Numbered from the stretch's first letter, positions 9,762 to 28,319 are shown. The stretch: DNA of 28,319 bases from Gemmatimonadota bacterium (GCA_002686955.1 NYZA01000149.1:1-28319); one strand, 5' to 3'. A program made the numbers and translations. The notes: a model not told the origin generated them from the letters alone.

Positions 9762-9799
9762 CGGGCGGATCGTATCAGTCCACCACCGACGCCAGAGCG

Positions 9800-10573
9800 A
9801 TGGAATCCCACACACCGGTCGCCCTCTCGATCGCGGGCTTCGACTCCAGCGGATGCGCGGGCATCCCCGCCGATCTCGCGACCTTCGCCGCTCACGGCGT
9901 GCATGGAGCCGCCGCCATCACCACGGTGACGGCACAGAGCGCGAGCGGCGTCACCGCCCTTCATCCCCTGCCGCCCGATCTGGTCCGGGCGCAGATCGAA
10001 AGGGCGCTCGCCGATCTTCGACCCCGCGCGATCAAGATCGGCATGCTCGGTCCCCCCGATCTCGTGCGCGCCCTTCGCGAGGCGCTCAGCGCGACATCCG
10101 CCCCCGTTGTTCTCGACCCGGTCGGGTGCGCGACCTCCGGCCGCTCCTTCCTCTGGGCGGACACCCTCGCCGAGCAGATCGCTCCCCTGCTCGATCGAAT
10201 CGCGCTCTTGACTCCTAATCTGCCCGAGGCCCGAGACCTCGCGGGCGACGACGCGGTCGACTCGTGGTGCGCTGGTCGGCCCTTCGCCGTCCTGCTCAAG
10301 GGGGGACATGCACCGGGCAGCAGGATCGAAGATCGTCTCTACCGCCCCGGCGAAACACCGCTCGATTTCAGCCACCCGCGACTGGAGCTGCGCTCGGCTA
10401 GGGGCACCGGCTGCACCCTCTCCAGCGCCGTGGCCGCCGGCCTGGCCCTCGGCCGATCGCTCGAAGACGCTGTAGATGGCGCGATTCGGTATTTGCAATC
10501 GATCCTGCGTACTTCGATCGGTCGAGACCCCGAGCTGGGGCTGGATCGCAGCGGTCGGATCGTCGGACAGTGA
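9800..10573 (+). CDS. thiD: hydroxymethylpyrimidine/phosphomethylpyrimidine kinase
   Basis: Phosphorylates HMP and then HMP-P, giving the pyrimidine half of thiamine. The 257 residues match ThiD of the ribokinase-like fold: N-terminal AGFDSSGCAGIPADLATFAAHG (usually SDPSGGAGIQADLKTF), ITTVTAQSASGV, IKIGMLG, VLDPVGCATSG, LLTPNLPEA, and the anion-hole motif RGTGCTLSSAVAAGLALG with its catalytic Cys/Gly segment. ATG 9800 lies 38 bp from the divergent hemH start. The stop overlaps a GTG start of the next gene (GTGA, 10570-10573). It is the only thiamine biosynthetic gene in the window; a thiamine-binding protein is encoded at 21929-22234. Confidence 0.94.
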   Translation: MESHTPVALSIAGFDSSGCAGIPADLATFAAHGVHGAAAITTVTAQSASGVTALHPLPPDLVRAQIERALADLRPRAIKIGMLGPPDLVRALREALSATSAPVVLDPVGCATSGRSFLWADTLAEQIAPLLDRIALLTPNLPEARDLAGDDAVDSWCAGRPFAVLLKGGHAPGSRIEDRLYRPGETPLDFSHPRLELRSARGTGCTLSSAVAAGLALGRSLEDAVDGAIRYLQSILRTSIGRDPELGLDRSGRIVGQ

Positions 10574-11073
10574 GCGCGACCCCGCACGGCACGCCATCCC
10601 GCATCACCGTCTGCGTTATGACGAAATCCCCTCTACCCGGCGCCGCGAAGAGCCGTTTGGCCCGAGGCATCGGCGAGGAGCGCGCCTCCCGGATCGCCCG
10701 AGCCATGATCGCCGATACCTGGGCCTGGATCGGAGCCGTCGCGGCGATCGTCGAACCGGTTCTCGTGCTCCAGGGACCGAAGCGCGCTCTCCCCCCCCTC
10801 GATCCGCCCCCCCGAATCTGGAGGCAGCGCGCCGGCGACCTCGGCAGCCGCCTCGAGTCGGCGCTACGCCGCGCGGCTCGCGAATCGGGCGGCGGGGCCA
10901 TCGCCGTCGGCACCGACGCGGTCGGCCTCCCGCCGGAACGGCTCATCTGCGCCGCCGAAGCGCTCGGGCGTGGTCGAACGGTCCTGGGGCCGACCAACGA
11001 CGGCGGCTACTACCTCATGGGCATCCCGGCACGGCCCCCCCTCCCTGCTACCAGACCATTCAGTCGGCGGTGA
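10570..11073 (+). CDS. TIGR04282/DUF2064 glycosyltransferase-like protein, C-terminally truncated
   Basis: Begins with GTG overlapping the thiD stop. The N-terminal part is a clear member of the DUF2064 (TIGR04282, GT-A/nucleotidyltransferase-like) family: CVMTKSPLPGAAKSRLARGIGEERA near the start, VGTDAVGLPPERL mid-way and GPTNDGGYYLMGI. Family members run to about 200-220 residues; this ORF has 167. Similarity ends shortly after GYYLMGIPARPP, exactly where a C7 run (11035-11041) occurs and a different gene, a beta-helix protein, begins in another frame. The last dozen residues (LPATRPFSRR) are junk read from that gene. The C-terminal third, normally including the DxDxxxD-type end, is therefore missing and the protein is probably non-functional, unless the join is an assembly error. 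Confidence 0.85.
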   Translation: MSATPHGTPSRITVCVMTKSPLPGAAKSRLARGIGEERASRIARAMIADTWAWIGAVAAIVEPVLVLQGPKRALPPLDPPPRIWRQRAGDLGSRLESALRRAARESGGGAIAVGTDAVGLPPERLICAAEALGRGRTVLGPTNDGGYYLMGIPARPPLPATRPFSRR

Positions 11074-12602
11074 ACGACGCCACCCACGGCGACGAGGTGT
11101 TCGTGCTGTCGGGCACCTACAATGAACAGGTTCGCATCGCTCCCCCCGAAGGGAATCCTCCCGAGTTCACACTGACCCTAAGGGCCGATAACCAGTCAGG
11201 CGCTGCACCCGTCACGGTGCGTCACAATGCGACCACTCGGGATCCAGAGAATCGTGACGCCGTCTTCGAAATCTACAACGACTACAAGAACCTCAGCGGA
11301 GCCGACCGTCCCGAGACCACGTCGGAAGACATGCAGATCACCATCGAGGGGTTCGAGATCATCGGCGAAGGCTGGGCCGCCGCGATCAGTGTGTGGCACA
11401 GGTGGTACGATCTCGAACAGCGATACGTCACCGGCCTCTTCATCCGAGACAACTACCTCGAGACCGGGGGCAACCACTGGGCGACACTGCCGATCGGGCT
11501 CAAGGGCGCCGGCCAGTACGGCTTGCGCAACCAACAACTGAAGTGGGGCGAGATCACCAACAACGAGATCGTCGCCTTTGGTATAGATCCTCAAACCGAT
11601 GGCATTTCGACGCATCATTTCGTCGGCAGGATCGCCAACAACCGGATCAGTGGCAACAGCGAAGGCATACACCTCGGCTACGCCCGGCTCGATCCTGAGC
11701 GGCATGAGCAGGAGCCCTACGTCGTGAACGAGCTCGTGCTCAACTACGAGGACACCATCATCGAACACAACCTCCTCTACTGCCATCAAAGGCAGAACGG
11801 CATCCACTTCGTACACGCGTCAAAAGGCATCGTTCGGAACAACCTTGTCGTGCGGAATGTCAGGTCCGGCGTCGATCAATTTGGCAAGCCCCTGGTCGCT
11901 CGCGGCATCCATGTGGGCGAGCCGCCCAATCCGAACCTCGTGCCGCAGATACAGGAGTGCATCGACGACCCCGACGAGTGCTACGACCAGGCAGCCGTTG
12001 GCGACGACGTCTTCGGGGTCCAGGTCACGGTACACAACAACACGATCGAGCATATCGATGGGCCGGGACTCTTCGTGCACGAGTTAGCAGAGGCCGTGAT
12101 CCGAAACAACATCGTGCACAAAACCGCCCTGGATGGGTCCGGATTCGCGGGAATCGAGATCCAGCAATGGGATCCTGGCGACTGGCCCCCCCTCCAGTTT
12201 TGGGACTCAAACTACAACCTGCTCCACGCCAACGGTCGGGACTACGAAGACGAGGACGTGCTGGCCGGCGACTATGACTTGCATGACAACAGTGGCAAGC
12301 CCAATGCTCCGCGCTTCCAGTTCATCGTCAACCAGGGCGCCGGCACCGATTCGGTGAGCTTCATGTTGAAGACCTACCAGGGAGTGTCGCCGTGCTATCC
12401 CTTGACGGTGAGTAGTAGATCGGATGCGATTGATAAGGGGGAGCCGGGCATCACCTGGTACGATGCCGAAGGCGGACCGGGGCTGGAGGATCGGCGCGCC
12501 GACATCGGCGCCTACGGCGGCCCGAACAACTTCTGGGATCCGAACGAACAAGATCCCTGTCTCGAGTACCTGGAAGGAGTGGGCCAGTGCGTGCCGCAGT
12601 GA
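11046..12602 (+). CDS. right-handed parallel beta-helix protein, 5' end lost
   Basis: Recognisable sequence begins at about 11046 with CYQTIQSAVNDATHGDEVFVLSGTY, the usual opening of secreted beta-helix (NosD/pectate-lyase-like) repeat domains. It continues with coil after coil carrying N and I ladders (IRDNYLE, ITNNEIVAFG, IANNRISGN, IEHNLLYC, VRNNLVVRN, VHNNTIEHI, IRNNIVHKT). It closes with AIDKGEPG and RRADIGAYGGPNNF, the customary end of this family. The frame is open upstream to 10476, but there it reads the thiD and DUF2064 genes out of frame. The normal signal peptide and N-terminal cap are missing. Substrate unknown; such proteins usually bind or cleave polysaccharides outside the cell. 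It overlaps the next gene by 16 bp. Confidence 0.82.
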   Translation, partial: CYQTIQSAVNDATHGDEVFVLSGTYNEQVRIAPPEGNPPEFTLTLRADNQSGAAPVTVRHNATTRDPENRDAVFEIYNDYKNLSGADRPETTSEDMQITIEGFEIIGEGWAAAISVWHRWYDLEQRYVTGLFIRDNYLETGGNHWATLPIGLKGAGQYGLRNQQLKWGEITNNEIVAFGIDPQTDGISTHHFVGRIANNRISGNSEGIHLGYARLDPERHEQEPYVVNELVLNYEDTIIEHNLLYCHQRQNGIHFVHASKGIVRNNLVVRNVRSGVDQFGKPLVARGIHVGEPPNPNLVPQIQECIDDPDECYDQAAVGDDVFGVQVTVHNNTIEHIDGPGLFVHELAEAVIRNNIVHKTALDGSGFAGIEIQQWDPGDWPPLQFWDSNYNLLHANGRDYEDEDVLAGDYDLHDNSGKPNAPRFQFIVNQGAGTDSVSFMLKTYQGVSPCYPLTVSSRSDAIDKGEPGITWYDAEGGPGLEDRRADIGAYGGPNNFWDPNEQDPCLEYLEGVGQCVPQ

Positions 12603-14431
12603 GGCGCGCAAAGGTCAGTGCCAGATTCCTCGTTCTTCTAGGTGGCTGCATTGCCACCGGCACGGGCGCATTCGCCGTGAATGAGAACGAGGGCTGGCCC
12701 GTGTATTTCGCACCCACCGCGGGAGCACCGGCGGTCGCAGATCTCGATCGTGATGGGCATGCGGAGGTCATCGCCGCATCGCACTACGAGCAGGATCCGT
12801 GGATCGGCATGTGGGATCGGCACGGCAATCCCCTACCGGGTTGGCCGATCCAGCCCCTGGGCCCGGTGGACCGGACGTTCACGCCCTGCGACATCGACAA
12901 CGATGGGATCGTGGAAGTCCTTGCCAATACATCGCGTCGCGGTCCGTGGGAGGGCATTATTCACGCCTACTACATCGACACGACCGAACCACCGGGTTGG
13001 CCGCTTCGCTTCCCATGGTTCAGTGTGCCGACGCCAACGGTCCACGACCTAGACGGCGATGGGCGGCTGGAGACCTTGCTCGCGACGGTAAACGAAATCC
13101 AGCAGACTCCGATCGACTCCTCACGTGTCCACGTCATCCTCGCCGACGGTCGGGAAGCGGCCGGCTGGCCAATTCTTTTCGAAGACATGATCATCGAAAG
13201 CGAGATCGCGATCGCCGACCTCGACCTGGACGGCGACATGGAGCTCATCTTCGGCGGCGGCAGGTACAGCGAGTTCTACAGCTCCGGATGGCTCTACGCG
13301 TTACACCACGATGGTACGCCCTTCGCCGCAGATACGGTCCTCGCCCAAGTCGACCGCGCGATCGGTCCGTACAGAATCGGCATCGCCAACTTGCGGGGCG
13401 ATCGTCGCCCCGAAATCATGGTTACCTGCGCGCGCTCCCACCTCCACGCCTTCTCAGTCGATGGCCAGCCGATCGATGGCTGGCCCCCCCCCGGCATAGG
13501 TGCCGTCGAAAAAATGCCGGTCGCAATCAACGCGATCGACGGCGTGGCTCAGGCGATCGTCGTGACCGCCTACTCCGGCAATGTCGCCATCTACGATCCC
13601 CACGGGGAGTTCTATTATCCATGGCCGCTGGGCTACGGCAGCGGTGGTTTTCAGTGTCAGCCTCTCGTCGCCGATCTCGACGGCGACATCGATCTGGAGA
13701 TCTTCGCCGGCGGCAACAAGCCCTACATCTGGGCGCTCGAGCAAGACGGGTCGAATGTGGAGGGCTGGCCCTACTTTTCCGGCATCTCGAACTTCGGCAC
13801 CGGCACCCTGGCCGATCTCGACGAAGATGGCGACACCGATATCGTCTTCCAAGGCTACGACGCCAAGATCCACGTCTTCGACACCCCCGGCAAATGGGAC
13901 TACAAACGGATCGAATGCGGCACTTGGCTCTACGACAATTGGCACACCGGCGCCTACCACAAAGATCTCTACCGCGAGGCCGAGTCCGCCAACAACATGA
14001 TCGGCTTCGAAACCGTCGCCGACACTTCCGCCTGGGGCCACGGCGCCATCCGTTTCGCGGCGAACGAAACGCGCGCCAAAGCGATCACCTCGACAACCGA
14101 AATCAAAGCACCCGCCACCCTCTACTACCGCACCGAAGTCCCCGTCTGGGAGGAGTACAGTCTCTGGGTCCGCATCCGCCGCGACGACGCTTCCAAGGCC
14201 CGCCCCGATCTCGCCATCGAGATCGACGGCGATAAACGCGTCGGCGGCGGCCACCGTGTCGCGGGCTCTCCGGGGCCGTGGGTGTGGTTCGAGATAGGGC
14301 GTTTGCCGCTGAAGGCGGGTGTGCACGACCTGCGCGTCCGCGCGCCGAAGCTACCTGTCGTGATCGATCGTTGGCTGCTCACAACGAGGACCCGTTTTCC
14401 GCTGCTCGATGAGCGGCCGCATGCTTGGTAG
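12587..14431 (+). CDS. secreted FG-GAP/VCBS beta-propeller protein with C-terminal CBM-like domain
   Basis: 614 residues. GTG 12587 is preceded by GGAAGGAG (12572-12579) at 7 nt. An N-terminal hydrophobic segment (FLVLLGGCIATGTGAFA) is a signal peptide; LGGC could also serve as a weak lipobox. Residues about 35-460 hold seven FG-GAP-like repeats with calcium-binding DxDxDG loops (DLDRDG 52-57, DIDNDG 102-107, DLDGDG 154-159, DLDLDG 211-216, DLDGDI near 363, DLDEDG near 409, and a degenerate LRGDRRPE), interleaved with 'GWP' motifs, as in an integrin-type propeller. From about 462 (YREAESANN) to the end is a beta-rich region resembling CBM6/35-type sugar-binding modules. It is coupled to the beta-helix gene by a 16-bp overlap, suggesting a joint extracellular role. 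Function unknown. Confidence 0.85.
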   Translation: MRAAVRRAKVSARFLVLLGGCIATGTGAFAVNENEGWPVYFAPTAGAPAVADLDRDGHAEVIAASHYEQDPWIGMWDRHGNPLPGWPIQPLGPVDRTFTPCDIDNDGIVEVLANTSRRGPWEGIIHAYYIDTTEPPGWPLRFPWFSVPTPTVHDLDGDGRLETLLATVNEIQQTPIDSSRVHVILADGREAAGWPILFEDMIIESEIAIADLDLDGDMELIFGGGRYSEFYSSGWLYALHHDGTPFAADTVLAQVDRAIGPYRIGIANLRGDRRPEIMVTCARSHLHAFSVDGQPIDGWPPPGIGAVEKMPVAINAIDGVAQAIVVTAYSGNVAIYDPHGEFYYPWPLGYGSGGFQCQPLVADLDGDIDLEIFAGGNKPYIWALEQDGSNVEGWPYFSGISNFGTGTLADLDEDGDTDIVFQGYDAKIHVFDTPGKWDYKRIECGTWLYDNWHTGAYHKDLYREAESANNMIGFETVADTSAWGHGAIRFAANETRAKAITSTTEIKAPATLYYRTEVPVWEEYSLWVRIRRDDASKARPDLAIEIDGDKRVGGGHRVAGSPGPWVWFEIGRLPLKAGVHDLRVRAPKLPVVIDRWLLTTRTRFPLLDERPHAW

Positions 14432-14444
14432 CGGCCGGCGCGTG

Positions 14445-14464
14445 AACTGTTCCCGGGAACAGTT
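14445..14464. terminator. 20-bp perfect palindrome between convergent genes
   Basis: AACTGTTCCC is followed immediately by its reverse complement, giving a perfect 20-bp palindrome 13 bp after the stop of the plus-strand propeller gene and about 100 bp from the end of the minus-strand kinase. Its position fits a bidirectional transcription stop, but there is no T-run and no loop, so it could equally be a dyad protein-binding site. A second small hairpin, GACAC-GAA-GTGTC, lies at 14542-14554 near the kinase stop. Confidence 0.4.
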
Positions 14465-14566
14465 GCGGGCGGGCATTCGCCGGGCGCCGGACCGTTTCGG
14501 CCGCGCCGTGGCGATGAGGCACCAGCCCGCTGCCCTCGCCCGACACGAAGTGTCTGACAAACTTCG

Positions 14567-16576
14567 CTACCGCTCCACCGCCCCCTGATCAAGCCCGAAA
14601 CGCAGCGCCCGAAGCAGAGTCTCCTGCTTGAAAGGTTTGTGGACGATCGCCACCCGCTCCGGCTCTAGCCCGTGCCGGCGCCCAACCTCGTCGGAGTAGC
14701 CCGACATGTATACGACCGGCAGATCCGGCCGCTTCCGCTGTAGCCGCGCGACCAGCGCCGGACCAGAGAGCTCGGGCATGACGACGTCGGTGAGAAGCAG
14801 ATCGATCTTCGAGCCCTGTTCCACGAAAACCCGCTCCGCCACCGCTCCATCGGGGGCCTGGAGCACCTCGTATCCATGCTGGGTGAGCAAGCGCGCGGTC
14901 AGCTCCCGCAGCCCTTCCTCGTCTTCGACGATCAACACCGTCTCGCCCTTGCCGTGGACCAGCTCCACGTCAGCGGGAGCCGCCGGCGCCTCCGTCGACT
15001 CCCCCGTCACGGGCAGGTAGATCCGAAAGACCGTTCCCCGTCCCTCCACCGAATCCACCTCGATACCGCCGCCACACTGCCGCACGATGCCGTAGACGAT
15101 CGAGAGCCCGAGACCGGTTCCCTTCTCGCGCTCCTTGGTCGTGAAGAAGGGCTCGAAGATGCGATCGATCAAGCTCGGGCTCATGCCGCGGCCCGTGTCT
15201 TCGATCTCGAGGCAGACGTACTGGCCCGCCTTCGACTCGAAACCGTGTCGGGCGAGCCGCCCATCCCCCTCCGAGATCTCTTGCCCGTAGGTGCGGATAC
15301 CGAGCCGCCCTCCGCCGCTCATCGCGTCCCGAGCGTTCACACCGAGGTTCACCAGCACCTGTTCGATATGCATCGGATCGGCCTTGATCGAAGGCAGATC
15401 GGGCGTGAGCTCGCAGTGCAGCTCGATGTCGGCGCCCAGTGTCCGCCGGAGCAGACCTTCGATCCCGCCGACCACCTCGTTCAGCGCGACCACCGAAGGA
15501 CGCCCCGCCTCTTTGCGGCTGAAGAGGAGCAGGCGACGGGTCAAGGCCGCTCCACGTTCGGCCGCCCTCTCGATCTCTTTCACATCCGCCAGGCGCGTGT
15601 CGTCCTCCGCCAGCCCCTCGCGCAGAAACTGGGCGAAGCCGAGCACGACCGCCAGCAGATTGTTGAAGTCGTGGGCCACCCCCCCGGCCAATGTGCCAAG
15701 GGCCTCCAGCTTCTGCGATTGCCTGAGCTGCGCCTCGCTCTCCCGCAGCTCCTCGGTGCGTTCCCGAACGCGCTGCTCCAGGATCTCTTCGGAGCGCTTG
15801 CTCTCGGTGATCTCCCGCAACACGCAGACCGCGCCCAGGGGCTCTCCCCGCTCCCCCCAGATCGGATTCGCCTTCGCGCCGAGCCACACCCCCTCCGGCG
15901 CATCGGCCCTCTCGACCCGGAGATCACGACGCTCGACCGCCTCTCCCCGCATCGCCCGGGCCAGCGGAAGCTCCCCCGGCGCGATCGGCCGCATCTCGGG
16001 CCCGAGCAGCCCCCACTCCAACGAATCGGTGCTCGCCACCGGCACACCCAATAGACGATCGCAGGCGGAGTTGCTGTAAAGCGTTCGTCCTTCACCGTCG
16101 GTCACCACCACACCGTCGCTCATCGACGCCAGAATCGACCGGAGGAAGAGATCCGATTCGCGCATCTTTCGATGGGCAATCTCGAGAGCGCGCCGTCGCC
16201 GATCCATCTCCAGGAAAACTGTAACTTTACTCCGTAAAATCGTTTCGTTCACCGGCTTGAAAATGAAGTCGACCGCGCCTGCGTCGTACCCCTTGAACTC
16301 CAGCCGCAGCTCCCGCGACGTGGCGGTCACGAAGATGATCGGCACCGCCTCGGTGCTCGGATTCCCCCTGAGCAGCCCGGCCGTCTCGAATCCGTCCATC
16401 TCCGGCATCCGCACATCGAGCAGAACCAGCGCCAGCTCGTGGGCCAGGGCTTGCGAAAGGGCCTGCTCGCCGCTCGTCGCCTCGACGATCTCGACATCGA
16501 GATCTCCCAGAATGGCGGACATCGCCAGCAGATTCCTGGGCTCATCGTCCACGATCAGGATCTTCGGTCGGGTCAC
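14567..16576 (-). CDS. hybrid sensor kinase/response regulator (REC-PAS-HisKA-HATPase-REC)
   Basis: 669 residues with no membrane segment. The N-terminal receiver (1-120) has D10/D11, the phospho-acceptor D54 in VLLDVRMPEMDG, T84 and K107. A linker helix and a PAS domain (about 140-255) follow. The HisKA has its phospho-accepting His near residue 300 (LAGGVAHDFNNLLAV). The ATPase domain (about 410-525) has NLGVNARDAM, DTGRGM and GTGLGLSIVYG. A C-terminal receiver (about 540-660) has its Asp in LLLTDVVMPELSG. The start overlaps the stop of the upstream kinase (ATGA, 16573-16576). The first receiver is thus placed to accept phosphate from the membrane kinase next door, forming a relay. No DNA-binding domain is present, so the final output lies elsewhere. 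Confidence 0.95.
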   Translation of the reverse strand: MTRPKILIVDDEPRNLLAMSAILGDLDVEIVEATSGEQALSQALAHELALVLLDVRMPEMDGFETAGLLRGNPSTEAVPIIFVTATSRELRLEFKGYDAGAVDFIFKPVNETILRSKVTVFLEMDRRRRALEIAHRKMRESDLFLRSILASMSDGVVVTDGEGRTLYSNSACDRLLGVPVASTDSLEWGLLGPEMRPIAPGELPLARAMRGEAVERRDLRVERADAPEGVWLGAKANPIWGERGEPLGAVCVLREITESKRSEEILEQRVRERTEELRESEAQLRQSQKLEALGTLAGGVAHDFNNLLAVVLGFAQFLREGLAEDDTRLADVKEIERAAERGAALTRRLLLFSRKEAGRPSVVALNEVVGGIEGLLRRTLGADIELHCELTPDLPSIKADPMHIEQVLVNLGVNARDAMSGGGRLGIRTYGQEISEGDGRLARHGFESKAGQYVCLEIEDTGRGMSPSLIDRIFEPFFTTKEREKGTGLGLSIVYGIVRQCGGGIEVDSVEGRGTVFRIYLPVTGESTEAPAAPADVELVHGKGETVLIVEDEEGLRELTARLLTQHGYEVLQAPDGAVAERVFVEQGSKIDLLLTDVVMPELSGPALVARLQRKRPDLPVVYMSGYSDEVGRRHGLEPERVAIVHKPFKQETLLRALRFGLDQGAVER

Positions 16577-18264
16577 GGGTCCTCTCCGCCGGTTTCGATC
16601 CTACACCATGGCGCCGATCGGGAAAGCCACACCCGCAGCAGAGCAACCAGCACTTCGATCCGCACCGGCTTCGCCAGGTAGTCGTTCGCGCCGGCCTCGA
16701 TGCATCGCTCCCGCTCGCCGAGCATCGTCTTCGCCGTGAGGGCGACGATCGGCAAGGCCCCGAAACGCTCCTGCGCGCGAATTCGGCGCATCGCTTCGTA
16801 ACCGTCCATCACCGGCATCATCACATCGATCAGAACCAGCTCCGTATCGGGCGTCTCCTCCAACCGCTCCAGCGCCTGCATTCCATTCTCGGCCAAGATC
16901 ACATAGACCCCGTGCCGGCGCAGCTCCGCCGAGAGGGCGAACGCGCTACGCAGATCGTCATCGACGAGGAGCACCCGGCGACCGTTCAAGATCCGCTCGG
17001 GATCGAGGAAGCGGCCGATCATCTCACGAGCCCCGCTCTTCATCGTCTCGGCCGCCTTGTTGAGATGGAGCACGAGCCGCGAGAGGAGCTGCGCGGGCGA
17101 GAAGACCCCCAACCATCCTGCTTCTTCCTCGCGCTTCGCCAGCGCCTCTTGCTCCGCGGGAGTGAGCGCGCGTCCCGAGTAGAGAAGTACCGGCGGCGCC
17201 GCCAAGACCGGATCGGGTTGGACCGTGCTCGGAAGACCCGAGCCTGACGCAAATAGTGCGGCGGGACCCCAAACCACCAGGTCGAATCGCCCCTCGCGTC
17301 GCTTTTGGGCGGCTTCCCCGGCATCGTGGGCCACGTCCACAAAAATCTCTTCCGATTCGATCAGATCGAGGAGGGTGGAGCAGTCGGATTCCTCCATCAG
17401 AGCCAGCAACACCTTTTTCGTCCGCGCGGCGAGGCGGCTCTCGATCGCCCGGAGCGCCGCGTCGATCGCCTCCATGATCACCGGCTTGACGATGTGGCCG
17501 ACGATCCCACTACTCAGCAGAGCCCAGTCGGGCTCGCGAACCGAAATCACGTGTACCGGGATGTGACGCAGCGACGGGTCCGACTGAATCGCGTCCAAAA
17601 CCTGTCGCCCATCGAGATCGGGCAGAACGAGATCGAGAATCACGGCGCTGGGACGGTGCTCGAGCGCGAGGAGCAGCCCGCTGGTGCCATCGCCCGCGAC
17701 GATGCATCGAAACCCGCGATCGCGGGCCCGGTCCCGAACGATCTCGGCGAAGGGGCGATCGTCCTCGATCACGAGAATCGATCGATCATCCGGGACGACC
17801 CTCTCTCGGTCGTCGGCGAGGAAGACCGATTCGGGGGATGGGGATAGCGCGGGGATCCGGCGCATAGCCGGAAGCGGACGCAGCCCCGCGGACCCGCGCT
17901 CCTCCGAAATGGCGCCGGTGTATATGCGAGGGAGGACGAGCGTGAACCGGCTCCCTTCGCCGGGGCGACTCTCGAGCCGGATCTCGCCGCCGAGCTGCGC
18001 CGCCAGCTTGCGCGAGATCGCCAATCCGAGCCCGGTGCCTCCATGGTCCCGAGCCACCGCCGTTTGCACCTGGTGAAAAGCGTCGAAGATGGCGTCCAGC
18101 TGGTCGTCATCGATGCCGATGCCGGTGTCGATCACCGCGAAGGCGAGGGCATCGGCTCCGTAGTCGGCGCGGGCATCGTCGATGCGAGCGATTTCGAGCG
18201 TGACCGAACCGCTCTTGGTGAATTTGAGGGCATTCGAGAGCAGATTGCGCAAGATCTGCTGCAA
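16573..18264 (-). CDS. C-terminal part of split hybrid histidine kinase: HATPase plus three receivers
   Basis: 563 codons open from TTG 18264, read in the same frame as the kinase N-terminus at 19797. It begins with the ATPase N-box (LQQILRNLLSNALKFT) and continues through DTGIGIDDDQL, HGGTGLGLAISRKL and LESRPGEGSRFTLVLP. Three receiver modules follow. The first (about 17780-17430) is canonical: VIEDD and ILDLVLPDLDG. The second (about 17415-17010) is degenerate: VLLALMEESD and FDLVVWGPAAL, where the acceptor Asp and its acidic pocket are missing. The third (about 16985-16620) is canonical: VLLVDDD, VLIDVMMPVMDGYEAM, LTAKT and YLAKPV. The piece has no good start of its own and must originally have been joined to the HisKA piece. 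Its stop overlaps the downstream kinase gene by 4 bp. Confidence 0.88.
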   Translation of the reverse strand: MQQILRNLLSNALKFTKSGSVTLEIARIDDARADYGADALAFAVIDTGIGIDDDQLDAIFDAFHQVQTAVARDHGGTGLGLAISRKLAAQLGGEIRLESRPGEGSRFTLVLPRIYTGAISEERGSAGLRPLPAMRRIPALSPSPESVFLADDRERVVPDDRSILVIEDDRPFAEIVRDRARDRGFRCIVAGDGTSGLLLALEHRPSAVILDLVLPDLDGRQVLDAIQSDPSLRHIPVHVISVREPDWALLSSGIVGHIVKPVIMEAIDAALRAIESRLAARTKKVLLALMEESDCSTLLDLIESEEIFVDVAHDAGEAAQKRREGRFDLVVWGPAALFASGSGLPSTVQPDPVLAAPPVLLYSGRALTPAEQEALAKREEEAGWLGVFSPAQLLSRLVLHLNKAAETMKSGAREMIGRFLDPERILNGRRVLLVDDDLRSAFALSAELRRHGVYVILAENGMQALERLEETPDTELVLIDVMMPVMDGYEAMRRIRAQERFGALPIVALTAKTMLGERERCIEAGANDYLAKPVRIEVLVALLRVWLSRSAPWCRIETGGEDP

Positions 18265-22291: not shown

Positions 22292-25200
22292 CTACGAGCG
22301 CGCGGTCCGAGCAAGAGCATCCGCGATCGTCGCCCGTACCTTGCCGGTGTCATCGATCAACCTGAACTGCCATTGCCCATGCCGCCCATCGAGATTGACC
22401 GCGCGAATCCAGCGCTTCGCCGCCTGCACCTTGATCTCTTTCAAGCGATCGAATCCCTTGGGCTCGAGGATCAGGTAGCGCTCCTCATCGGTTTCCAGAC
22501 GAATGATGAAATCGGGGATGTAATCGTGCGAGTGACCGTCGTGCAGGTAGGGGATGGCGAATCCGAGACCGGCGTTCTTGACGAAGGAGCGCACTCCGTC
22601 GTGGCGGTCGACCTGATAGGCGACGGATTGCTCCCATTTCTTCGTGTCGGGTACCACCGCGTTCACATGGCTCCTGACGACGGGATAAGGCTCATTCCTG
22701 GTTCGGAAGTCCACGTCGGCTGTGGAGCCAGGTCCACGGTTCGCCTCGTATCGCGGCAGCTCCGCGCTCTCTCCACGTCTTTCGTCCGGATGAATCGCCT
22801 CTACGAGTCGCTCGATCATCCAACCATAGTAGGGAGACAAGAAGACATCGATCGTCTCCGACGGCGCCACCGGCACGACCTTCTCGCGCAGATAACGCCG
22901 GACGATTCGGGCGATCTGAGGAAAGAGCACATGGGCCGGTGCTTCGCAGCCACCCTGCCGGAGATAGCTGCGGGTGAGATCACGAGACAGCTTGAAGATG
23001 AGCTCTTGGAGCCGGTTGGCTCGCCGGAAGGGTTGCAGATCTACCTGCCGGAGCTTGCCTGGTCCGAGCAGGGACGGCCTGCCCTCATTGCTGGGTAGTC
23101 CCGCTTTGAGCTCCACTTCCGGAGGAATGTCCGTGGGATCGAGCCGCAGCTCGGCGATCTCATTCCAATCGATGGCGATGCGACTCCGCACGGCCTGGCT
23201 GTACCCCTCCACCCGCGGGAAGCGAATCTCGTGCTCCACACTCTCGGGCAGGGCGTGGACATGCCAGGTCGTCGGCGGCGGCTTGGTCCCTCCCCCCGGG
23301 TTCTCCTTGAAGGGAATGATCTCGAAGGGCACGCCGAAGACAGTCGCGATCTCTTCCGTCAGCAGATCGTCATCGCCGATCTCATAGCTGGCTCGCCGCA
23401 GGCCACGGCCGACCACCTGCTCGCAGAGCAACTGTGACATGAACGGTCTAAGCCCGATGATATGGGTCACGGTATTGCAGTCCCAGCCCTCGGTCAGCAT
23501 GCCGACGCTGACGATGCAGCGCACATCTCGTCCCGGTGGGTGCAAAGGGCGCTCCAGCTTCTTCGCCAACTCCGGGAAACCGGCGGGGTAGAGCGCTTGC
23601 CCCCGTTGATCGCGCGGCCACTCCAGCCGACCGACTGTATCCAGGGTCAGACGCATCCAATCCGACGCATCCGACTTGGCTTCGCCGGAATCGGTCTCGT
23701 GCACGACTCGTGAGTCGACCCGAATGGTGTTCAGTCGATCGTCACTATTCAGCAAGCTCGGCATCTGAGCCGGAGGGATTCCCACGGGTGGCCGATCCTC
23801 TGCCAGCCACTCGAAAACGATCTTCGCCAAGCGCGTGTTCCTGCAAACGATAATGAAGACGGGATTTCGCTCTTCAGCCGCATTGTGCTCCCAGGCGGCG
23901 CGAAGTTCCTCCCACAACCCGGCCATCATGGCGATCGGTACATTGGCGTGCTTGAGCACGGCCTCCGGTTTGGCCATCTGCTTGCGGCCGCCACGCTCTA
24001 CCGTGGTCAGCTTGGGCATGATCCAGCGCCAGATATTGAAGTAGCCGGGAATCGAAGCGCCGGTTGAATCTCGCACGGCCAGCTGCGGGATCTTGGTAAG
24101 CCCCGATTCGATTGCATCCACGAGGCCGAACTCGCTGACCACCCAAGGGAATACTCGATTGGTATCTTGCCCGACCCGCCCCAGGTAGTAGGGAGTTGCC
24201 GAGAAGTCGATACAGATATTGACGCCGCGCAGCTTGTGGATGCGATCCAGGCCATCCACCCAAACCGTCGCCTCTTTGAAGAACTCCTCCACTTCCTCCT
24301 CGTCCCCGAGCGCTTCCCCCTCATCTTCGTCCGCATCACTTCGACGAATACGATAGGCGTGGTGGGCCTCGTCGTTCATCACCAAGATGTTTCGCTTGCC
24401 GCCTACCTCACGGCCGAGCAGGCGATCCACGACCGCCGTATCGCTCTCGATGTAGCGTAGCGATTCCACTTCCACCTTGACCAAGGCGTTCCTCTTCGAA
24501 TCACGATGCTCCTTCAGAATCTCGATCAGCCCGCCATTCACCTGCCGGTGCAGGGCATCTTTCGTGAGGTAGCGATGGCCCCGTTTGGTTTCGCTCTTGC
24601 TACCGATCCGCACGGTCTCGCGCACGCGCAGCGGGCGACCGCAGCGATTCACTTTGGCCGATACACCGCCGGTCTGCACTCCTCGAGGCTCGAAGCGATG
24701 CCAGTTGCTGATCAGCACACGGCCCTGGTTGAGCTGAGGCATCAGATGCGGGGGGACGAGATCGCGGGTTCGGTAGAGACTCGCCTCCCCGCGGGAGGGG
24801 TCGAGCTCTCCCAGACGGCTGCGGATCGTGACGTTGGGGCAAACCACGAGCACCACGTCCGAGAAACGCGAGTCGGCGCGGCTCCCGACCTTGTTCAGGA
24901 TGCTCCAAGCCGCAAGCATGCCCATGACGGTGGTCTTGCCCGAGCCGGTCGCCATCTTGCACGCGTAGCGCCGAAAAGCACGGTACCCCTCGGCCTTGCG
25001 CTCGGCGCTCGGTTCGTCGAATGGCACATCGATGCCGTGCAGGAAGTCAACGCGCGCTTCGGTGAGAAAGATGATGCTCTCGACCGCCTCGAGCTGGGCG
25101 TAAAAAAGACACTGAAAGCGCCCCTCTCGCCGCCAGTGGTTCAGCAACTCCATGGTGGTGCGCGTGACGCCGCCTTCGCCCCGCAAGGCAAGAGGACGCC

Positions 25201-25426
25201 ATTCGCCCAACGCCTTGCGGATGCGATTCACCAGCTTCAGCTCGATCGAGATTCCCACCCCTGCTTCGCCTTCCGGCGTCGAGGTGCCGGGCTTGCGGTA
25301 GAAGTAGCTCGCCGGGCGTCGGCCCTGCTTGCGCACCGGCGGCTCCAGGGCCGCTATCTCCCAGTACTCCTTGGGTTCCTCGAAAGGAGGATTCAGGATC
25401 GGCTCGGGGACTTCATGCTGGTTCAT
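22292..25426 (-). CDS. type III-like restriction endonuclease subunit (DEAH helicase-nuclease)
   Basis: 1044 residues. SF2 helicase motifs are MATGSGKTT (Walker A, near 155), VVCPN, MNDEAHHAYR (DEAH, near 350), DFSATPYYLG (near 405), VGMLTEGWD and EQVVGRGLRRASY (motif VI, near 668). A C-terminal PD-(D/E)xK nuclease is visible: PDFIIRLETDEERYLILEPKGF near residue 970-990. This layout is that of Res subunits of type III-like systems; it strongly resembles the family NCBI calls BPTD_3080 restriction endonucleases. It would cut DNA lacking the cognate methylation, using ATP to translocate. ATG 25426 overlaps the end of the AAA gene by 14 bp, so the methyltransferase, AAA protein and nuclease form one operon. 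No frameshift or missing motif is seen, so the system looks active. Confidence 0.93.
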   Translation of the reverse strand: MNQHEVPEPILNPPFEEPKEYWEIAALEPPVRKQGRRPASYFYRKPGTSTPEGEAGVGISIELKLVNRIRKALGEWRPLALRGEGGVTRTTMELLNHWRREGRFQCLFYAQLEAVESIIFLTEARVDFLHGIDVPFDEPSAERKAEGYRAFRRYACKMATGSGKTTVMGMLAAWSILNKVGSRADSRFSDVVLVVCPNVTIRSRLGELDPSRGEASLYRTRDLVPPHLMPQLNQGRVLISNWHRFEPRGVQTGGVSAKVNRCGRPLRVRETVRIGSKSETKRGHRYLTKDALHRQVNGGLIEILKEHRDSKRNALVKVEVESLRYIESDTAVVDRLLGREVGGKRNILVMNDEAHHAYRIRRSDADEDEGEALGDEEEVEEFFKEATVWVDGLDRIHKLRGVNICIDFSATPYYLGRVGQDTNRVFPWVVSEFGLVDAIESGLTKIPQLAVRDSTGASIPGYFNIWRWIMPKLTTVERGGRKQMAKPEAVLKHANVPIAMMAGLWEELRAAWEHNAAEERNPVFIIVCRNTRLAKIVFEWLAEDRPPVGIPPAQMPSLLNSDDRLNTIRVDSRVVHETDSGEAKSDASDWMRLTLDTVGRLEWPRDQRGQALYPAGFPELAKKLERPLHPPGRDVRCIVSVGMLTEGWDCNTVTHIIGLRPFMSQLLCEQVVGRGLRRASYEIGDDDLLTEEIATVFGVPFEIIPFKENPGGGTKPPPTTWHVHALPESVEHEIRFPRVEGYSQAVRSRIAIDWNEIAELRLDPTDIPPEVELKAGLPSNEGRPSLLGPGKLRQVDLQPFRRANRLQELIFKLSRDLTRSYLRQGGCEAPAHVLFPQIARIVRRYLREKVVPVAPSETIDVFLSPYYGWMIERLVEAIHPDERRGESAELPRYEANRGPGSTADVDFRTRNEPYPVVRSHVNAVVPDTKKWEQSVAYQVDRHDGVRSFVKNAGLGFAIPYLHDGHSHDYIPDFIIRLETDEERYLILEPKGFDRLKEIKVQAAKRWIRAVNLDGRHGQWQFRLIDDTGKVRATIADALARTARS

Positions 25427-27077
25427 CGGGGTCGATTCCGAATGCTCGGCAGATCGCGTCCAGCTTCTCCGTGACCTCGGGGTGGATCTCTTCGGGGATC
25501 ATCAGCGCCGCGATCTCGTTGTAGCGCGTATACGGGAAACCGTGCAGTCCAGCGGCGTTCAATGCCGGTGGCAACAGTCGGGTCCTGGCCTTGGTCGTGT
25601 TCAGATACTCGTGCTCTCCCAAAGGGTCCTTCAGAACCGCGGGGGGATACTCGTTCTCGAAATGGGCATGGAGATCTTCGATGTGTTGCTCAGCCAGAGA
25701 TCGGCCGACCTGGTGCTCGACGAAGCGGGCCAGAGCCGCGGGATGAACGAGGTAGCTCTCAATCTCGTATCGCCGCCAGCGCAAGCGCTGAAATCCTCTA
25801 CCGGTGATCTCGCTCGATAGAATGCTCGGATTCGCATCCCCGTCGACCAGCTCCAGCCCTGGAATGCCTTCCTGGGCCATCGTCAATGCCTTGTAGTGAT
25901 CGCGCCCTTGGATGCCCGCGGCTCCCTCTCGCGGCTGTACGACGGTTCGCTTCCACATCAGCTCTTTGGTCAAGAGCGGCAAGGCACGATGGTCCAGTCG
26001 GTCCGCCCAGGCGCGCAGGATACTGATGTCGGTGTGGTCCTCCGTGTACAAGATCCCCCTGGCGCTCCCGGCCTGCATGAGGTCGGTGTTGCTCAAGACC
26101 CGCAACGATCTGATCAACTGCCTGCGCTCATCGCTGTCCGCCAGAATCCTCGGCTCGTTGAGCAGCACGCACAGCTCTCGCGGATCTACCGTATCGATGA
26201 CCACCTCGGAATGGGTCGCCAGGATGAGCTGCGACTCGTGGTGGGCGGCAAGCTTGCGAAGCTCGCCGTAGATGGCGTCTTGCAGGATCACGTGCAAGTG
26301 GGCGTCCGGCTCGTCGAGCAGCAAGACCGAGCCCGCGCGCGTGTTCAGGAGTGTCAAGAGCATCAACACCTGCTGAAAGCCGCTGCCCGCGCTGGCGATG
26401 TCCAGTGCTCTTCCTCCCTTTTCCTGCCGGTATTCGGCGATGATGTCCGCACGGGATGAATCGGGTGGCAGAAGCTCATAGCCGAATAGCCGCTCGATGG
26501 AGTCCAGCAGGGCCTCCCACGCCTCTTGGTTCCGATTGGCTTCGAGCAGAAGATTGCGCAACACTTCGCCGGGTCGTCCCGAACCCATGAGCTGCTCGAT
26601 CTTGGCGGTCTGGAGCACCGGCTCATCGGGGGCGAGGCCGGTCATCGGGGGGACGAAGACGGCGCCCAAGACATCTTGGCTCAGCAGCTCCGCCGAAACA
26701 TCGCTTCTGGGGCGCACATAGATCTGCTCCGTGGAGTCTGGGATGAGCTCCATGCAGATACATCCGCCATCGCTCCGGCGCACCTCGATCTCGATCGGCC
26801 GCTTTTTGTAGTTGCGTCGATGCCAGAGCAGATCGAAATTCCGCAGCGGCACCGTGGAGAAGGCCTGGCGCGCGATGGGCACCTTCGTGTAGCCCCTGCG
26901 CTTGTTGTAGTCGTTCAGCTTCTTCCAATGGGTCAAGGCCAGGTTCCAGGAGGCAAGGGCCTGCAACAGAGTGGTCTTGCCGGTGTTGTTCGGCCCGGCC
27001 AGCACCACATGTCCCGGGATATCGAAAGCGACCTCCTCGAAACGCTTGAACCGCCGCAGGATCACTTTGCGGATCAT
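25413..27077 (-). CDS. OLD/PARIS-like AAA ATPase with TOPRIM-like C-terminal domain
   Basis: 554 residues. The RecF/SMC-like ABC ATPase part has VILRRFKRFEEVAFDI, Walker A GPNNTGKTT (28-36), the signature-like SAGSGFQQVLML (near 235) and Walker B SVLLLDEPDAHLH (near 255), followed by LILATHSEVVIDTV. The C-terminal part starts at ILYTEDHTDISILRAWA (near 342). It has a conserved Glu, an Asp pair in LELVDGDAN (near 410) and WRRYEIESYLVHP (near 436), a pattern like the TOPRIM/DUF4435-type nucleases of OLD and PARIS defence proteins. ATG 27077 lies in the methyltransferase stop (ATGA), and the stop overlaps the nuclease gene by 14 bp. The frame runs on to 27968, but only as a shadow of the methyltransferase. 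Its role in the restriction system is unknown. Confidence 0.88.
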   Translation of the reverse strand: MIRKVILRRFKRFEEVAFDIPGHVVLAGPNNTGKTTLLQALASWNLALTHWKKLNDYNKRRGYTKVPIARQAFSTVPLRNFDLLWHRRNYKKRPIEIEVRRSDGGCICMELIPDSTEQIYVRPRSDVSAELLSQDVLGAVFVPPMTGLAPDEPVLQTAKIEQLMGSGRPGEVLRNLLLEANRNQEAWEALLDSIERLFGYELLPPDSSRADIIAEYRQEKGGRALDIASAGSGFQQVLMLLTLLNTRAGSVLLLDEPDAHLHVILQDAIYGELRKLAAHHESQLILATHSEVVIDTVDPRELCVLLNEPRILADSDERRQLIRSLRVLSNTDLMQAGSARGILYTEDHTDISILRAWADRLDHRALPLLTKELMWKRTVVQPREGAAGIQGRDHYKALTMAQEGIPGLELVDGDANPSILSSEITGRGFQRLRWRRYEIESYLVHPAALARFVEHQVGRSLAEQHIEDLHAHFENEYPPAVLKDPLGEHEYLNTTKARTRLLPPALNAAGLHGFPYTRYNEIAALMIPEEIHPEVTEKLDAICRAFGIDPDEPA

Positions 27078-28319
27078 CTTTCCACCTCCTCCACGGCCTC
27101 CTCCATCGCCAGCTCCAGCATCAGCTCGTTGCCCCGATCGTCGAGCACCTTGATCGCGACGCGACCGTGGTCTCCAGGCGCGAAGGGTGCGCTGAGAGTG
27201 CCGGAGAGGTGCTCCCAAACCGAGTCCTCGAACTCCGTCTTCAGCGCACGCTTCAGAGCGCTCCAGGCCGAGGTGCGGGGGAAGAAAGCCTGACGTACGT
27301 GAAAGACCATGCCGTCGTAGTCGGTGTCGAGCAGCCAGGCCGGCACGTCGTCGCCTCGGCGATGGTCGGTGGTCACGTTGGCGGGATCGAATACATCCAG
27401 TCCCAGCAGCTCGACCTGATAGAGCCCCTCGGCATCGGCCTCCGTCGACCGGAAGAGGCGTGCTTCGGGCAGACCGCAGACCGAGAAGATCTGCGATGAA
27501 CGCATATTCTTCAGCAAGTCTCCCATCATCAGATCGGGGGTGGCCTGCACATAGGTGGCGGCGATCCCGATGGCCGGCTCGCATTGCTCGATGAGTTGGC
27601 GGGCTTTCGATTCGATGGCGAAGCCGATGGCATAAAGGTGGGTGTAGCTCTTGGCGACCGCTTCGCGCGCGGCCTCGTAGATCAGCTTCTCCGATACGGC
27701 GCCGTTCTCGGGACCGAAGACAATCGCGATAGGGGTCGGGTCCTCTTCCGCCGAGCGAGACTCGGTGCATGAGGAGCCGATCTCCGCTTCTGCGGACAGC
27801 GACAATGTGCGCGCAGGCAGACGGATATTGCGCAGCTCGATGGTGTCTCCGCCCCCCAAATGCAACACTGGGGAGCGTCGCAGCACCTCGAGCATGCGTT
27901 CGGCGAAGCCGGCGTGCTTCTCCGACGTCTCGGCCACACCGCTGTCTTCCTCGCCATCCCCCTCCCAATCCACCGGTGTCGGTATGGTCGCTTCGACACA
28001 GAATGGGCCGGTGACACGGGTGATCGACCGATCCGCCTCCGGGCGATCGACCAGCACCTCCTCTTTCGGCGGCTCGTCATTGGCGATGGAGCTCGATGTC
28101 GTATGGCTCGCGATGCCACCGACCTCTTCGCCCTTCTTGTTCTGCTTGCGTTTGTAGACGAAGCCCCCGGCGGGGCCGCGGGAGGGCTCTTTCAATTGAT
28201 GGAAGGGGAAGGTCGCGGTCAAGAGGCGTTGGCGGGCCAGGGCGAGGGGGACGCGGGAAGTGTCGCAGGTGATCCAGCGGCGGGCCCATTGCTCGGCGAC
28301 GTAAGCGCTGGTGCCGGAG
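27074..28319 (-). CDS. site-specific DNA methyltransferase of type III-like system, 5' end outside window
   Basis: The frame is open to the window edge; about 414 C-terminal residues are visible. The first are SGTSAYVAEQWARRWITCDT, the AdoMet-binding FxGxG region (SGT) followed by the acidic residue of motif II. Because this lies in the C-terminal half, the DPPY-type motif must be upstream, as in beta-class N6-adenine or N4-cytosine enzymes of the Mod type. Then come RVPLALARQRLLTATFPFHQL, a basic linker with KRKQNKKGE, DRSITRVTGPFCVEA, and a C-terminal domain with WLLDTDYDGMVFHVRQAFFP and GRVAIKVLDDRGNEL. I recognise these as typical of methyltransferases paired with BPTD_3080-type nucleases. 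It would modify host sites and protect them from the helicase-nuclease. Its TGA overlaps the AAA gene start (ATGA). Confidence 0.9.
   Translation of the reverse strand, partial: SGTSAYVAEQWARRWITCDTSRVPLALARQRLLTATFPFHQLKEPSRGPAGGFVYKRKQNKKGEEVGGIASHTTSSSIANDEPPKEEVLVDRPEADRSITRVTGPFCVEATIPTPVDWEGDGEEDSGVAETSEKHAGFAERMLEVLRRSPVLHLGGGDTIELRNIRLPARTLSLSAEAEIGSSCTESRSAEEDPTPIAIVFGPENGAVSEKLIYEAAREAVAKSYTHLYAIGFAIESKARQLIEQCEPAIGIAATYVQATPDLMMGDLLKNMRSSQIFSVCGLPEARLFRSTEADAEGLYQVELLGLDVFDPANVTTDHRRGDDVPAWLLDTDYDGMVFHVRQAFFPRTSAWSALKRALKTEFEDSVWEHLSGTLSAPFAPGDHGRVAIKVLDDRGNELMLELAMEEAVEEVER

What the first reader, a model, noticed from the sequence alone, without database searches (positions are those of the whole stretch)
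22292..28319. Three-gene defence operon: Mod methyltransferase, OLD/PARIS-like ATPase, Res helicase-nuclease
The methyltransferase and the DEAH helicase with PD-(D/E)xK nuclease form a type III-like restriction-modification pair. A RecF-like AAA protein with a TOPRIM-like C-terminus is placed between them, with ATGA and 14-bp overlaps, so all three are coupled. Canonical type III systems have only Mod and Res. PARIS-like ATPase-TOPRIM proteins act as guards that respond to phage anti-restriction proteins. The middle gene may therefore be a built-in second line that fires when the restriction pair is blocked.
Basis: partly seen in the sequence, partly recalled or inferred. Interest (0 to 1): 0.68.

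Follow-up and report, generated by a model that had tools for sequence, protein, structure and literature searches.

The report
Restriction system with swappable guard gene
A bacterial DNA-restriction gene pair carries between its two genes an ATPase-nuclease of the kind that triggers cell shutdown when phages block restriction, and relatives in other bacteria plug other toxin- or defence-type genes (or nothing) into exactly the same spot.

Summary
Window 22292-28318 (minus strand) encodes the C-terminal 414 aa of a type III-like Mod (the contig ends inside the gene), a 554-aa ATPase-TOPRIM protein, and a 1044-aa Res of NCBI's BPTD_3080 family. The overlaps are 4 and 14 bp. The middle protein is an OLD-family ABC ATPase. 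Its C-terminal domain is modelled as a TOPRIM domain whose best match is the PARIS effector AriB (Z 11.1); its catalytic acids are conserved in 28 of 28 relatives.

In 80 related Res loci the ATPase fills the Mod-Res gap in about half of the 68 that can be judged. In the rest the same gap is empty (Mod and Res then overlap by 4 bp) or holds other cargo: AAA+DUF4276 pairs, AAA_14/DUF4143, PIN, HEPN/MNT or DUF4258 modules. Cargo is swapped at the gene boundaries between 91-95% identical Res genes. No gene recurs outside the pair. Conversely, every close ATPase relative found in about 1,290 genomes lies beside this Res. More distant relatives sit in type I RM, DUF1156/DUF499, BREX-2-like and ubiquitin-like operons.

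Best reading: an exchangeable PrrC/PARIS-like backup effector embedded in a type III-like RM operon. That it fires when restriction is blocked remains inference.

The parts
27074..28318 (-). C-terminal 414 aa of the type III-like methyltransferase (Mod); the 5' half lies beyond the contig end
   Evidence: PADLOC MTase_III 142 bits; aligns to residues ~460 onward of 860-950 aa Mod relatives that carry N6_N4_Mtase
27074..27077 (-). ATGA overlap: ATPase start codon / Mod stop codon
   Evidence: sequence; the same 4-bp overlap in 24 of 28 directly adjacent cases
25413..27077 (-). 554-aa OLD-family ABC ATPase-TOPRIM protein (exchangeable companion gene)
   Evidence: AAA_21/AAA_15; model pLDDT 88; 28-sequence alignment
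26097..27077 (-). ABC ATPase domain, residues 1-327
   Evidence: VIA-align Z 16-19 to PtuA, SMC heads and AriA
26973..26996 (-). Walker A (GPNNTGKT)
   Evidence: GPNN..GK conserved in 28 relatives, one K to R
26304..26324 (-). Walker B (LLLDEPD)
   Evidence: DEPDAHLH invariant in 28 relatives
25416..26066 (-). TOPRIM domain, residues ~338-554
   Evidence: domain model pLDDT 94.8; best matches AriB Z 11.1 and OLD TOPRIM Z 8.1-8.8, unrelated folds at Z 3.9 and below
25836..25844 (-). TOPRIM DxD motif (D412-G-D414)
   Evidence: both D invariant in 28 relatives; the first acid, E346, is E in 24 and D in 4; D350 invariant
25413..25426 (-). 14-bp overlap of the ATPase 3' end and the Res 5' end
   Evidence: coordinates
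22292..25426 (-). 1044-aa Res: SF2 helicase with C-terminal PD-(D/E)xK nuclease, BPTD_3080 family
   Evidence: NF046055 975 bits, cut-off 800; PF04851
24932..24952 (-). Res Walker A (ATGSGKT, residues 159-165)
   Evidence: conserved in 67 relatives
24362..24373 (-). Res DEAH box (residues 352-355)
   Evidence: conserved in 67 relatives
22457..22516 (-). Res PD...ExK nuclease motif (P971 D972 ... E988 x K990)
   Evidence: P, D, E, K conserved in 67 relatives

Best explanation
This is a type III-like restriction-modification operon of the BPTD_3080 family. Its Mod and Res genes are separated by a cargo slot, and in this lineage the slot holds an OLD-family ATPase-TOPRIM effector. Mod would methylate host sites and recognise DNA; Res (helicase plus PD-(D/E)xK nuclease) would cut unmodified DNA; the pair is complete on its own. 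The middle protein would be made from the same message, stay silent in the healthy cell, and act as a backup suicide or dormancy nuclease of the PrrC/PARIS type, triggered through its ABC ATPase when phage infection or an anti-restriction factor disturbs the restriction complex. Shown: anatomy, domain folds, conserved catalytic residues, dedicated placement, co-inheritance with Res, optional and exchangeable presence. Inferred: that it is toxic, that Mod/Res or its own ATPase keeps it silent, what triggers it, and whether its target is tRNA or DNA.
For: (1) Fold: ATPase domain like PtuA, SMC heads and AriA; C-terminal domain best matched by AriB (Z 11.1, 196 residues), then OLD, retron and Gabija TOPRIMs, with other folds at Z 3.9 and below. 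(2) Catalytic residues: E/D346, D350, D412, D414, Walker A/B and signature conserved over relatives of 45-66% identity. (3) Dedicated placement: every >=600-bit ATPase relative found in about 1,290 genomes lies beside this Res; the independent samples of ~1,260 genomes were searched with the ATPase alone. No other gene recurs upstream of Mod (38 loci) or downstream of Res (55 loci). (4) Coupled translation: 4-bp overlap in 24 of 28 adjacent cases. (5) Co-inheritance: distance correlation ATPase-Res 0.73 versus Mod-Res 0.79 over 27 loci. (6) Dispensable for the pair: Mod and Res also occur with no gene between them. (7) Other slot contents include toxin- and defence-type genes. (8) Relatives of the ATPase occur in other modification-based systems: between hsdS and hsdR (L122), DUF1156/DUF499 (L154, L155), BREX-2-like (L123), type ISP (L114). 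(9) Precedents: PrrC embedded in a type IC hsd locus and activated by T4 Stp (PMC2610378, PMC12707154); OLD-TOPRIM backup effectors in BREX and BREX-related systems (PMC12839542).
Against: No activity, toxicity, trigger or phage resistance was tested. Complete toxin-antitoxin modules also use the slot, so cargo need not be regulated by Mod/Res. In L049 versus L051, Mod and Res are about 96% identical but the ATPases only 51%, which argues against a finely matched allele-specific interface. Some more distant relatives of the ATPase stand alone, away from any restriction genes, so the fold can act by itself. The distance correlation may partly reflect shared host ancestry.
Confidence: 0.55

Rival explanations
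1. Independent cargo: the ATPase-TOPRIM gene is a self-contained defence or addiction module that uses the Mod-Res junction as a protected, co-transcribed landing site and does not interact with Mod or Res.
For: The slot also takes complete toxin-antitoxin-like modules (UPF0175/PIN in L033, HEPN and PIN in L026, nucleotidyltransferase genes in L055, DUF4258/MqsA-like in L078) and sometimes two modules at once (L065, L077, L079); alleles are swapped between near-identical Mod/Res pairs; some distant relatives stand alone.
Against: Close relatives of this ATPase were found only in this slot, distances co-vary with Res about as well as Mod does, and it has no antitoxin gene of its own.
Confidence: 0.27
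2. Integral restriction subunit: the ATPase-TOPRIM protein takes part in DNA restriction itself, for example as a second nuclease or as a sensor that licenses Res.
For: Tight overlaps and co-inheritance; OLD-family TOPRIM proteins such as GajA nick DNA (PMC8136825, abstract).
Against: About half of the scoreable close relatives of the pair lack it while Mod and Res persist; closely related pairs replace it with unrelated proteins or nothing.
Confidence: 0.13
3. Non-functional passenger: a decaying insertion without selected function.
For: One relative has lost the TOPRIM domain (L014, 345 aa).
Against: The catalytic motifs are conserved across deep divergence and only one of about 33 copies is visibly truncated.
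Confidence: 0.03

Closest known systems
PrrC in the EcoprrI type IC hsd locus
   Same: ABC-ATPase plus C-terminal nuclease encoded inside an RM operon, optional, in bacteria of distant groups
   Different: PrrC's nuclease is a HEPN-type anticodon nuclease and its host system is type I; here the nuclease domain is TOPRIM and the system type III-like
PARIS (AriA + AriB, or fused AriAB)
   Same: ABC ATPase matching AriA (Z 17.0) and TOPRIM domain matching AriB best (Z 11.1)
   Different: single polypeptide locked into an RM operon; only generic ATPase matches to the PARIS sequence models (AriA 79 bits, AriAB 48 bits, among many AAA models); Ocr sensing unknown
OLD-TOPRIM backup effectors of BREX and BREX-related systems (PMC12839542)
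   Same: OLD ABC-TOPRIM proteins embedded in modification-based defence operons; ~40% identical relatives of this protein occur in DUF1156/DUF499 loci (L154, L155)
   Different: host system here is a Mod/Res pair without PglZ, DUF499 or BrxC
BPTD_3080 family restriction systems (NCBIfam NF046055)
   Same: this Res is a member; Mod is the neighbour
   Different: the family record names only the Res protein; the variable cargo slot was not found described in the papers searched
Retron/Septu PtuA, Gabija GajA, retron Eco8 effector
   Same: ABC ATPase fold; GajA and the Eco8 effector also carry a TOPRIM domain
   Different: no PtuB, GajB or reverse transcriptase gene in the operon

Membership tests
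BPTD_3080 family restriction endonuclease (NF046055) | whole-protein score above the curated cut-off (800 bits) | tested here: met
   975 bits, residues 7-1036
BPTD_3080 family restriction endonuclease (NF046055) | intact helicase motifs and PD-(D/E)xK nuclease residues | tested here: met
   ATGSGKT, DEAH, PD...ExK present and conserved in 67 relatives
Type III restriction-modification | adjacent Mod and Res genes | tested here: met
   Mod fragment MTase_III 142 bits; Mod upstream of Res in the relatives
Type III restriction-modification | complete Mod with DPPY and AdoMet motifs | tested here: inconclusive
   window holds only the C-terminal part; relatives carry DPPY and DPTCGSG
Type III restriction-modification | ATP-dependent cleavage needing two unmodified sites | not testable with these tools
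   needs biochemistry
OLD family (ABC ATPase + TOPRIM) | N-terminal ABC ATPase domain | tested here: met
   AAA_21/AAA_15, structure Z 16-19
OLD family (ABC ATPase + TOPRIM) | C-terminal TOPRIM fold with conserved acids | tested here: met
PARIS (AriA/AriB) | TOPRIM effector of the AriB kind | tested here: inconclusive
   AriB is the best fold match (Z 11.1) but at 10% identity, and the Pfam scan of the whole protein listed no AriB-type effector family
PARIS (AriA/AriB) | activation by the anti-restriction protein Ocr | not testable with these tools
   needs phage experiments
PrrC anticodon nucleases | C-terminal HEPN-type anticodon nuclease domain | tested here: not met
   C-terminal domain is TOPRIM
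PrrC anticodon nucleases | gene lies inside an RM operon | tested here: met
   between Mod and Res with 4-bp and 14-bp overlaps
Gabija | adjacent GajB UvrD-like helicase | tested here: not met
   neighbours are Mod and an SF2 Res; no recurrent third gene in relatives

The most novel reading that the evidence does not exclude
The junction between Mod and Res in this family is a true effector socket: one conserved restriction pair senses attack and controls whichever of several unrelated effectors (OLD-TOPRIM, AAA+DUF4276, AAA_14/DUF4143, PIN, HEPN modules) is plugged in, so that effectors are swapped by recombination at the start/stop junction without re-engineering the sensor.
Probability: 0.2. 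Interest if true: 0.75.

Novelty: new variant of a known kind. Interest (0 to 1): 0.52.

Why it matters
Coupling of restriction to suicide effectors has been proposed in general (Makarova et al. 2012, PMC3506569) and worked out for PrrC in type I systems. Here a type III-like family shows it as a repeated, sequence-precise exchange: near-identical Mod/Res pairs with different effectors at one junction. That makes the guard idea directly testable with matched natural pairs (cargo present, swapped or absent), and gives a search rule for further effectors: read whatever lies between Mod and Res in BPTD_3080 loci.

Tried and rejected
Fixed three-gene system: rejected, since about half of the scoreable related pairs lack this ATPase. 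More operon genes upstream of Mod: not supported, no recurrent gene. Gabija or PtuAB membership: no partner gene. ATPase on plasmids: only distant (<27% identity) hits although 47 plasmid records hold a Res relative. A survey centred on the window's own phylum gave only two held genomes. An apparent frameshift of the L042 ATPase was an artefact of my ORF extension. The standard ABC-ATPase classification paper (doi 10.1093/nar/gkaa726) is not held, so an earlier description there cannot be excluded. Text searches for this exact arrangement found none, but subscription journals and preprints are not covered.

Full report
OBSERVATION. The window is a complete contig, C149, of a 270-contig draft genome of 84.5% completeness. 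Its right end carries three minus-strand genes: Mod (27074-28318, cut by the contig end), an ATPase-TOPRIM gene (25413-27077) and Res (22292-25426). The Mod stop and ATPase start share ATGA, and the ATPase and Res overlap by 14 bp. Res scores 975 bits against NCBIfam NF046055, 'BPTD_3080 family restriction endonuclease', cut-off 800; it keeps the helicase motifs ATGSGKT and DEAH and the nuclease residues PD...ExK, all conserved in relatives. The Mod fragment matches PADLOC MTase_III with 142 bits. Relatives of Mod are mostly 860-950 aa with an N6_N4_Mtase domain, DPPY and DPTCGSG, so about 500 residues are missing here.

THE MIDDLE PROTEIN. Sequence searches see only a generic ABC/AAA ATPase. 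A model from 28 sequences (mean pLDDT 88) has an ABC ATPase domain (residues 1-327) most like retron/Septu PtuA, SMC heads and PARIS AriA (Z 16-19). The C-terminal domain, modelled alone (pLDDT 94.8), matches PARIS AriB best (Z 11.1, 196 residues, rmsd 4.2), then the OLD TOPRIM domains (Z 8.1-8.8), and retron and Gabija TOPRIMs; after these, matches fall to Z 3.9 and below. The acids expected of a TOPRIM site are kept: E/D346 (24 E, 4 D), D350, D412 and D414 (invariant), followed by an invariant Y-E-x-E-x-Y motif.

WHAT LIES BETWEEN MOD AND RES ELSEWHERE. A scan of 84,980 species genomes with Res returned 80 loci. Mod lies upstream of Res wherever enough sequence is held, apart from a few degraded loci. 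I could score the gap in 68 loci including the window (my own classification). 34 hold this ATPase (31 alone, 3 together with another AAA gene and a small gene: L065, L077, L079). 9 are empty or nearly so. 6 hold an AAA_14/DUF4143 protein. 3 hold a split pair of AAA ATPase plus a DUF4276-type protein. 16 hold other material (PIN, HEPN, nucleotidyltransferase, DUF4258/MqsA-like, ORF6N, IS200-like, unknown) (family scans). In six empty loci Mod and Res themselves overlap by 4 bp (L009, L015, L021, L043, L074, L083), and with the ATPase present its start overlaps the Mod stop by 4 bp in 24 of 28 directly adjacent cases. The coupling is thus kept whether or not cargo is there.

EXCHANGE AT THE GENE BOUNDARIES. 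On a Res tree the five gap states need at least 19 changes, and ATPase against non-ATPase at least 11. The clearest cases are close pairs. L072 (ATPase) and L013 (AAA + DUF4276): Res 91% and Mod 77% identical, DNA similarity ending 26 bases before the Mod stop and resuming 2 bases before the Res start. L050 (ATPase) and L078 (DUF4258 + zinc-ribbon gene): Res 94.5%, with breakpoints at the same two places. L049 and L051: Mod and Res both about 96% identical, ATPases only 51%, so an allele seems to have been replaced. Against this, over 27 loci the ATPase distances follow Res nearly as well as Mod does (correlation 0.73 versus 0.79), so long co-inheritance is the rule and exchange the exception; part of this correlation may be host ancestry.

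IS THE ATPASE DEDICATED TO THE PAIR? Searches with the ATPase profile in about 1,290 genomes (26 chosen for Res; the rest drawn from the classes or phyla of four loci) gave 22 places at >=600 bits. All have this Res at their downstream side and, unless another cargo or a contig end intervenes, Mod at the other. No other gene family recurs within 3 kb upstream of Mod (38 loci) or downstream of Res (55 loci); the most frequent are shared by two or three close relatives. Plasmids hold 47 records with Res relatives but no close ATPase relative. There the gap is empty (Mycobacterium avium, Shinella), holds DUF3800 (Thermus) or an unnamed protein (Planktothrix), or, in the reversed Res-Mod order of strain PCC 7002, a UPF0175/DUF3368 pair.

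WIDER FAMILY. More distant relatives of the ATPase (about 30-40% identity) occur in other systems that modify DNA: between hsdS and hsdR (L122), next to an HsdR-like protein (L115), with a kinase-NERD protein and a DUF7008 methylase as in type 2 BREX (L123), with a type ISP enzyme and a PLD helicase (L114), and with DUF1156 methylases, with or without DUF499 (L152, L154, L155); also in a multiubiquitin/E2/E1-JAB/DUF6527 operon (L149, L150) and as apparently lone genes (L116, L117, L120, L121, L125, L126). The TOPRIM E and the Glu-Asn/Ser-Tyr motif persist in nine that I aligned.

MECHANISM. The anatomy fits a backup effector best: an ATPase switch fused to a TOPRIM nuclease, co-translated with a restriction pair that also occurs without it. 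The same slot takes toxin-type genes. The nearest worked-out precedents are PrrC, latent in the EcoprrI complex and activated by the T4 anti-restriction peptide Stp (PMC2610378, PMC3506569, PMC12707154), and PARIS, where AriA senses Ocr and releases AriB, which cleaves tRNA (PMC12707154, PMC12839542). What is not shown is the trigger, the target, any toxicity, or any contact with Mod or Res. The main rival is an independent module that merely profits from the site; complete toxin-antitoxin modules in the same slot and the L049/L051 replacement speak for it, the dedicated clade and co-inheritance against it. A necessary restriction subunit is unlikely because the pair persists without it.

NOVELTY. 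The principle is known: restriction loci often contain suicide genes and replace them (PMC3506569), and OLD-TOPRIM backup effectors were catalogued in BREX and BREX-related systems in 2026 (PMC12839542). I found no description of an OLD-TOPRIM gene, or of a precise exchange slot, in BPTD_3080-type Mod/Res operons in the papers that could be searched; one key classification paper was not held. I therefore rate it a new variant of a known kind.

Noticed in passing
L003 (own genome, C258) 9613-17203: A second BPTD_3080 system in the same genome, in the order Res-Mod-AAA-DUF4276-like; the last gene starts with a GTGA overlap but has an in-frame stop at codon 41, so its effector looks broken while Res and Mod are open.
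   Followed up: partly
L150 5231-9734 and L149: A ~37% identical relative of the ATPase-TOPRIM protein is the last gene of a multiubiquitin/E2, E1-JAB, DUF6527 operon, an unexpected link between OLD-type effectors and bacterial ubiquitin-like systems.
   Followed up: partly
L122 1851-10750: A relative of the ATPase sits between hsdS and hsdR of a type I system, inside the hsd operon as prrC is.
   Followed up: partly
L154 4148-12998 and L155 1524-12899: Relatives of the ATPase lie between DUF1156 methylase and DUF499 ATPase genes; L155 also carries an AAA + DUF4276 pair in the same locus.
   Followed up: partly
L014 2258-3295: Natural allele in which the TOPRIM domain is lost and the ATPase domain (345 aa) remains, with Mod and Res still open.
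   Followed up: partly
L065, L077, L079, gap between Mod and Res: Two cargos stacked in one slot: an AAA_15-type ATPase plus a small protein followed by the ATPase-TOPRIM gene.
   Followed up: no
L119 2902-8152: A second Mod copy (C-terminal part) next to an SMC/AAA-like protein inside a BPTD_3080 locus, suggesting duplication around an inserted cargo.
   Followed up: no
window 1-22234: The rest of the contig is ordinary chromosome (MetG, SRP GTPase, Mrp-like, ferrochelatase, glycosyltransferase, histidine kinases, NMT1-like lipoprotein, porin O/P); no other defence gene showed in the ORFs scanned.
   Followed up: partly
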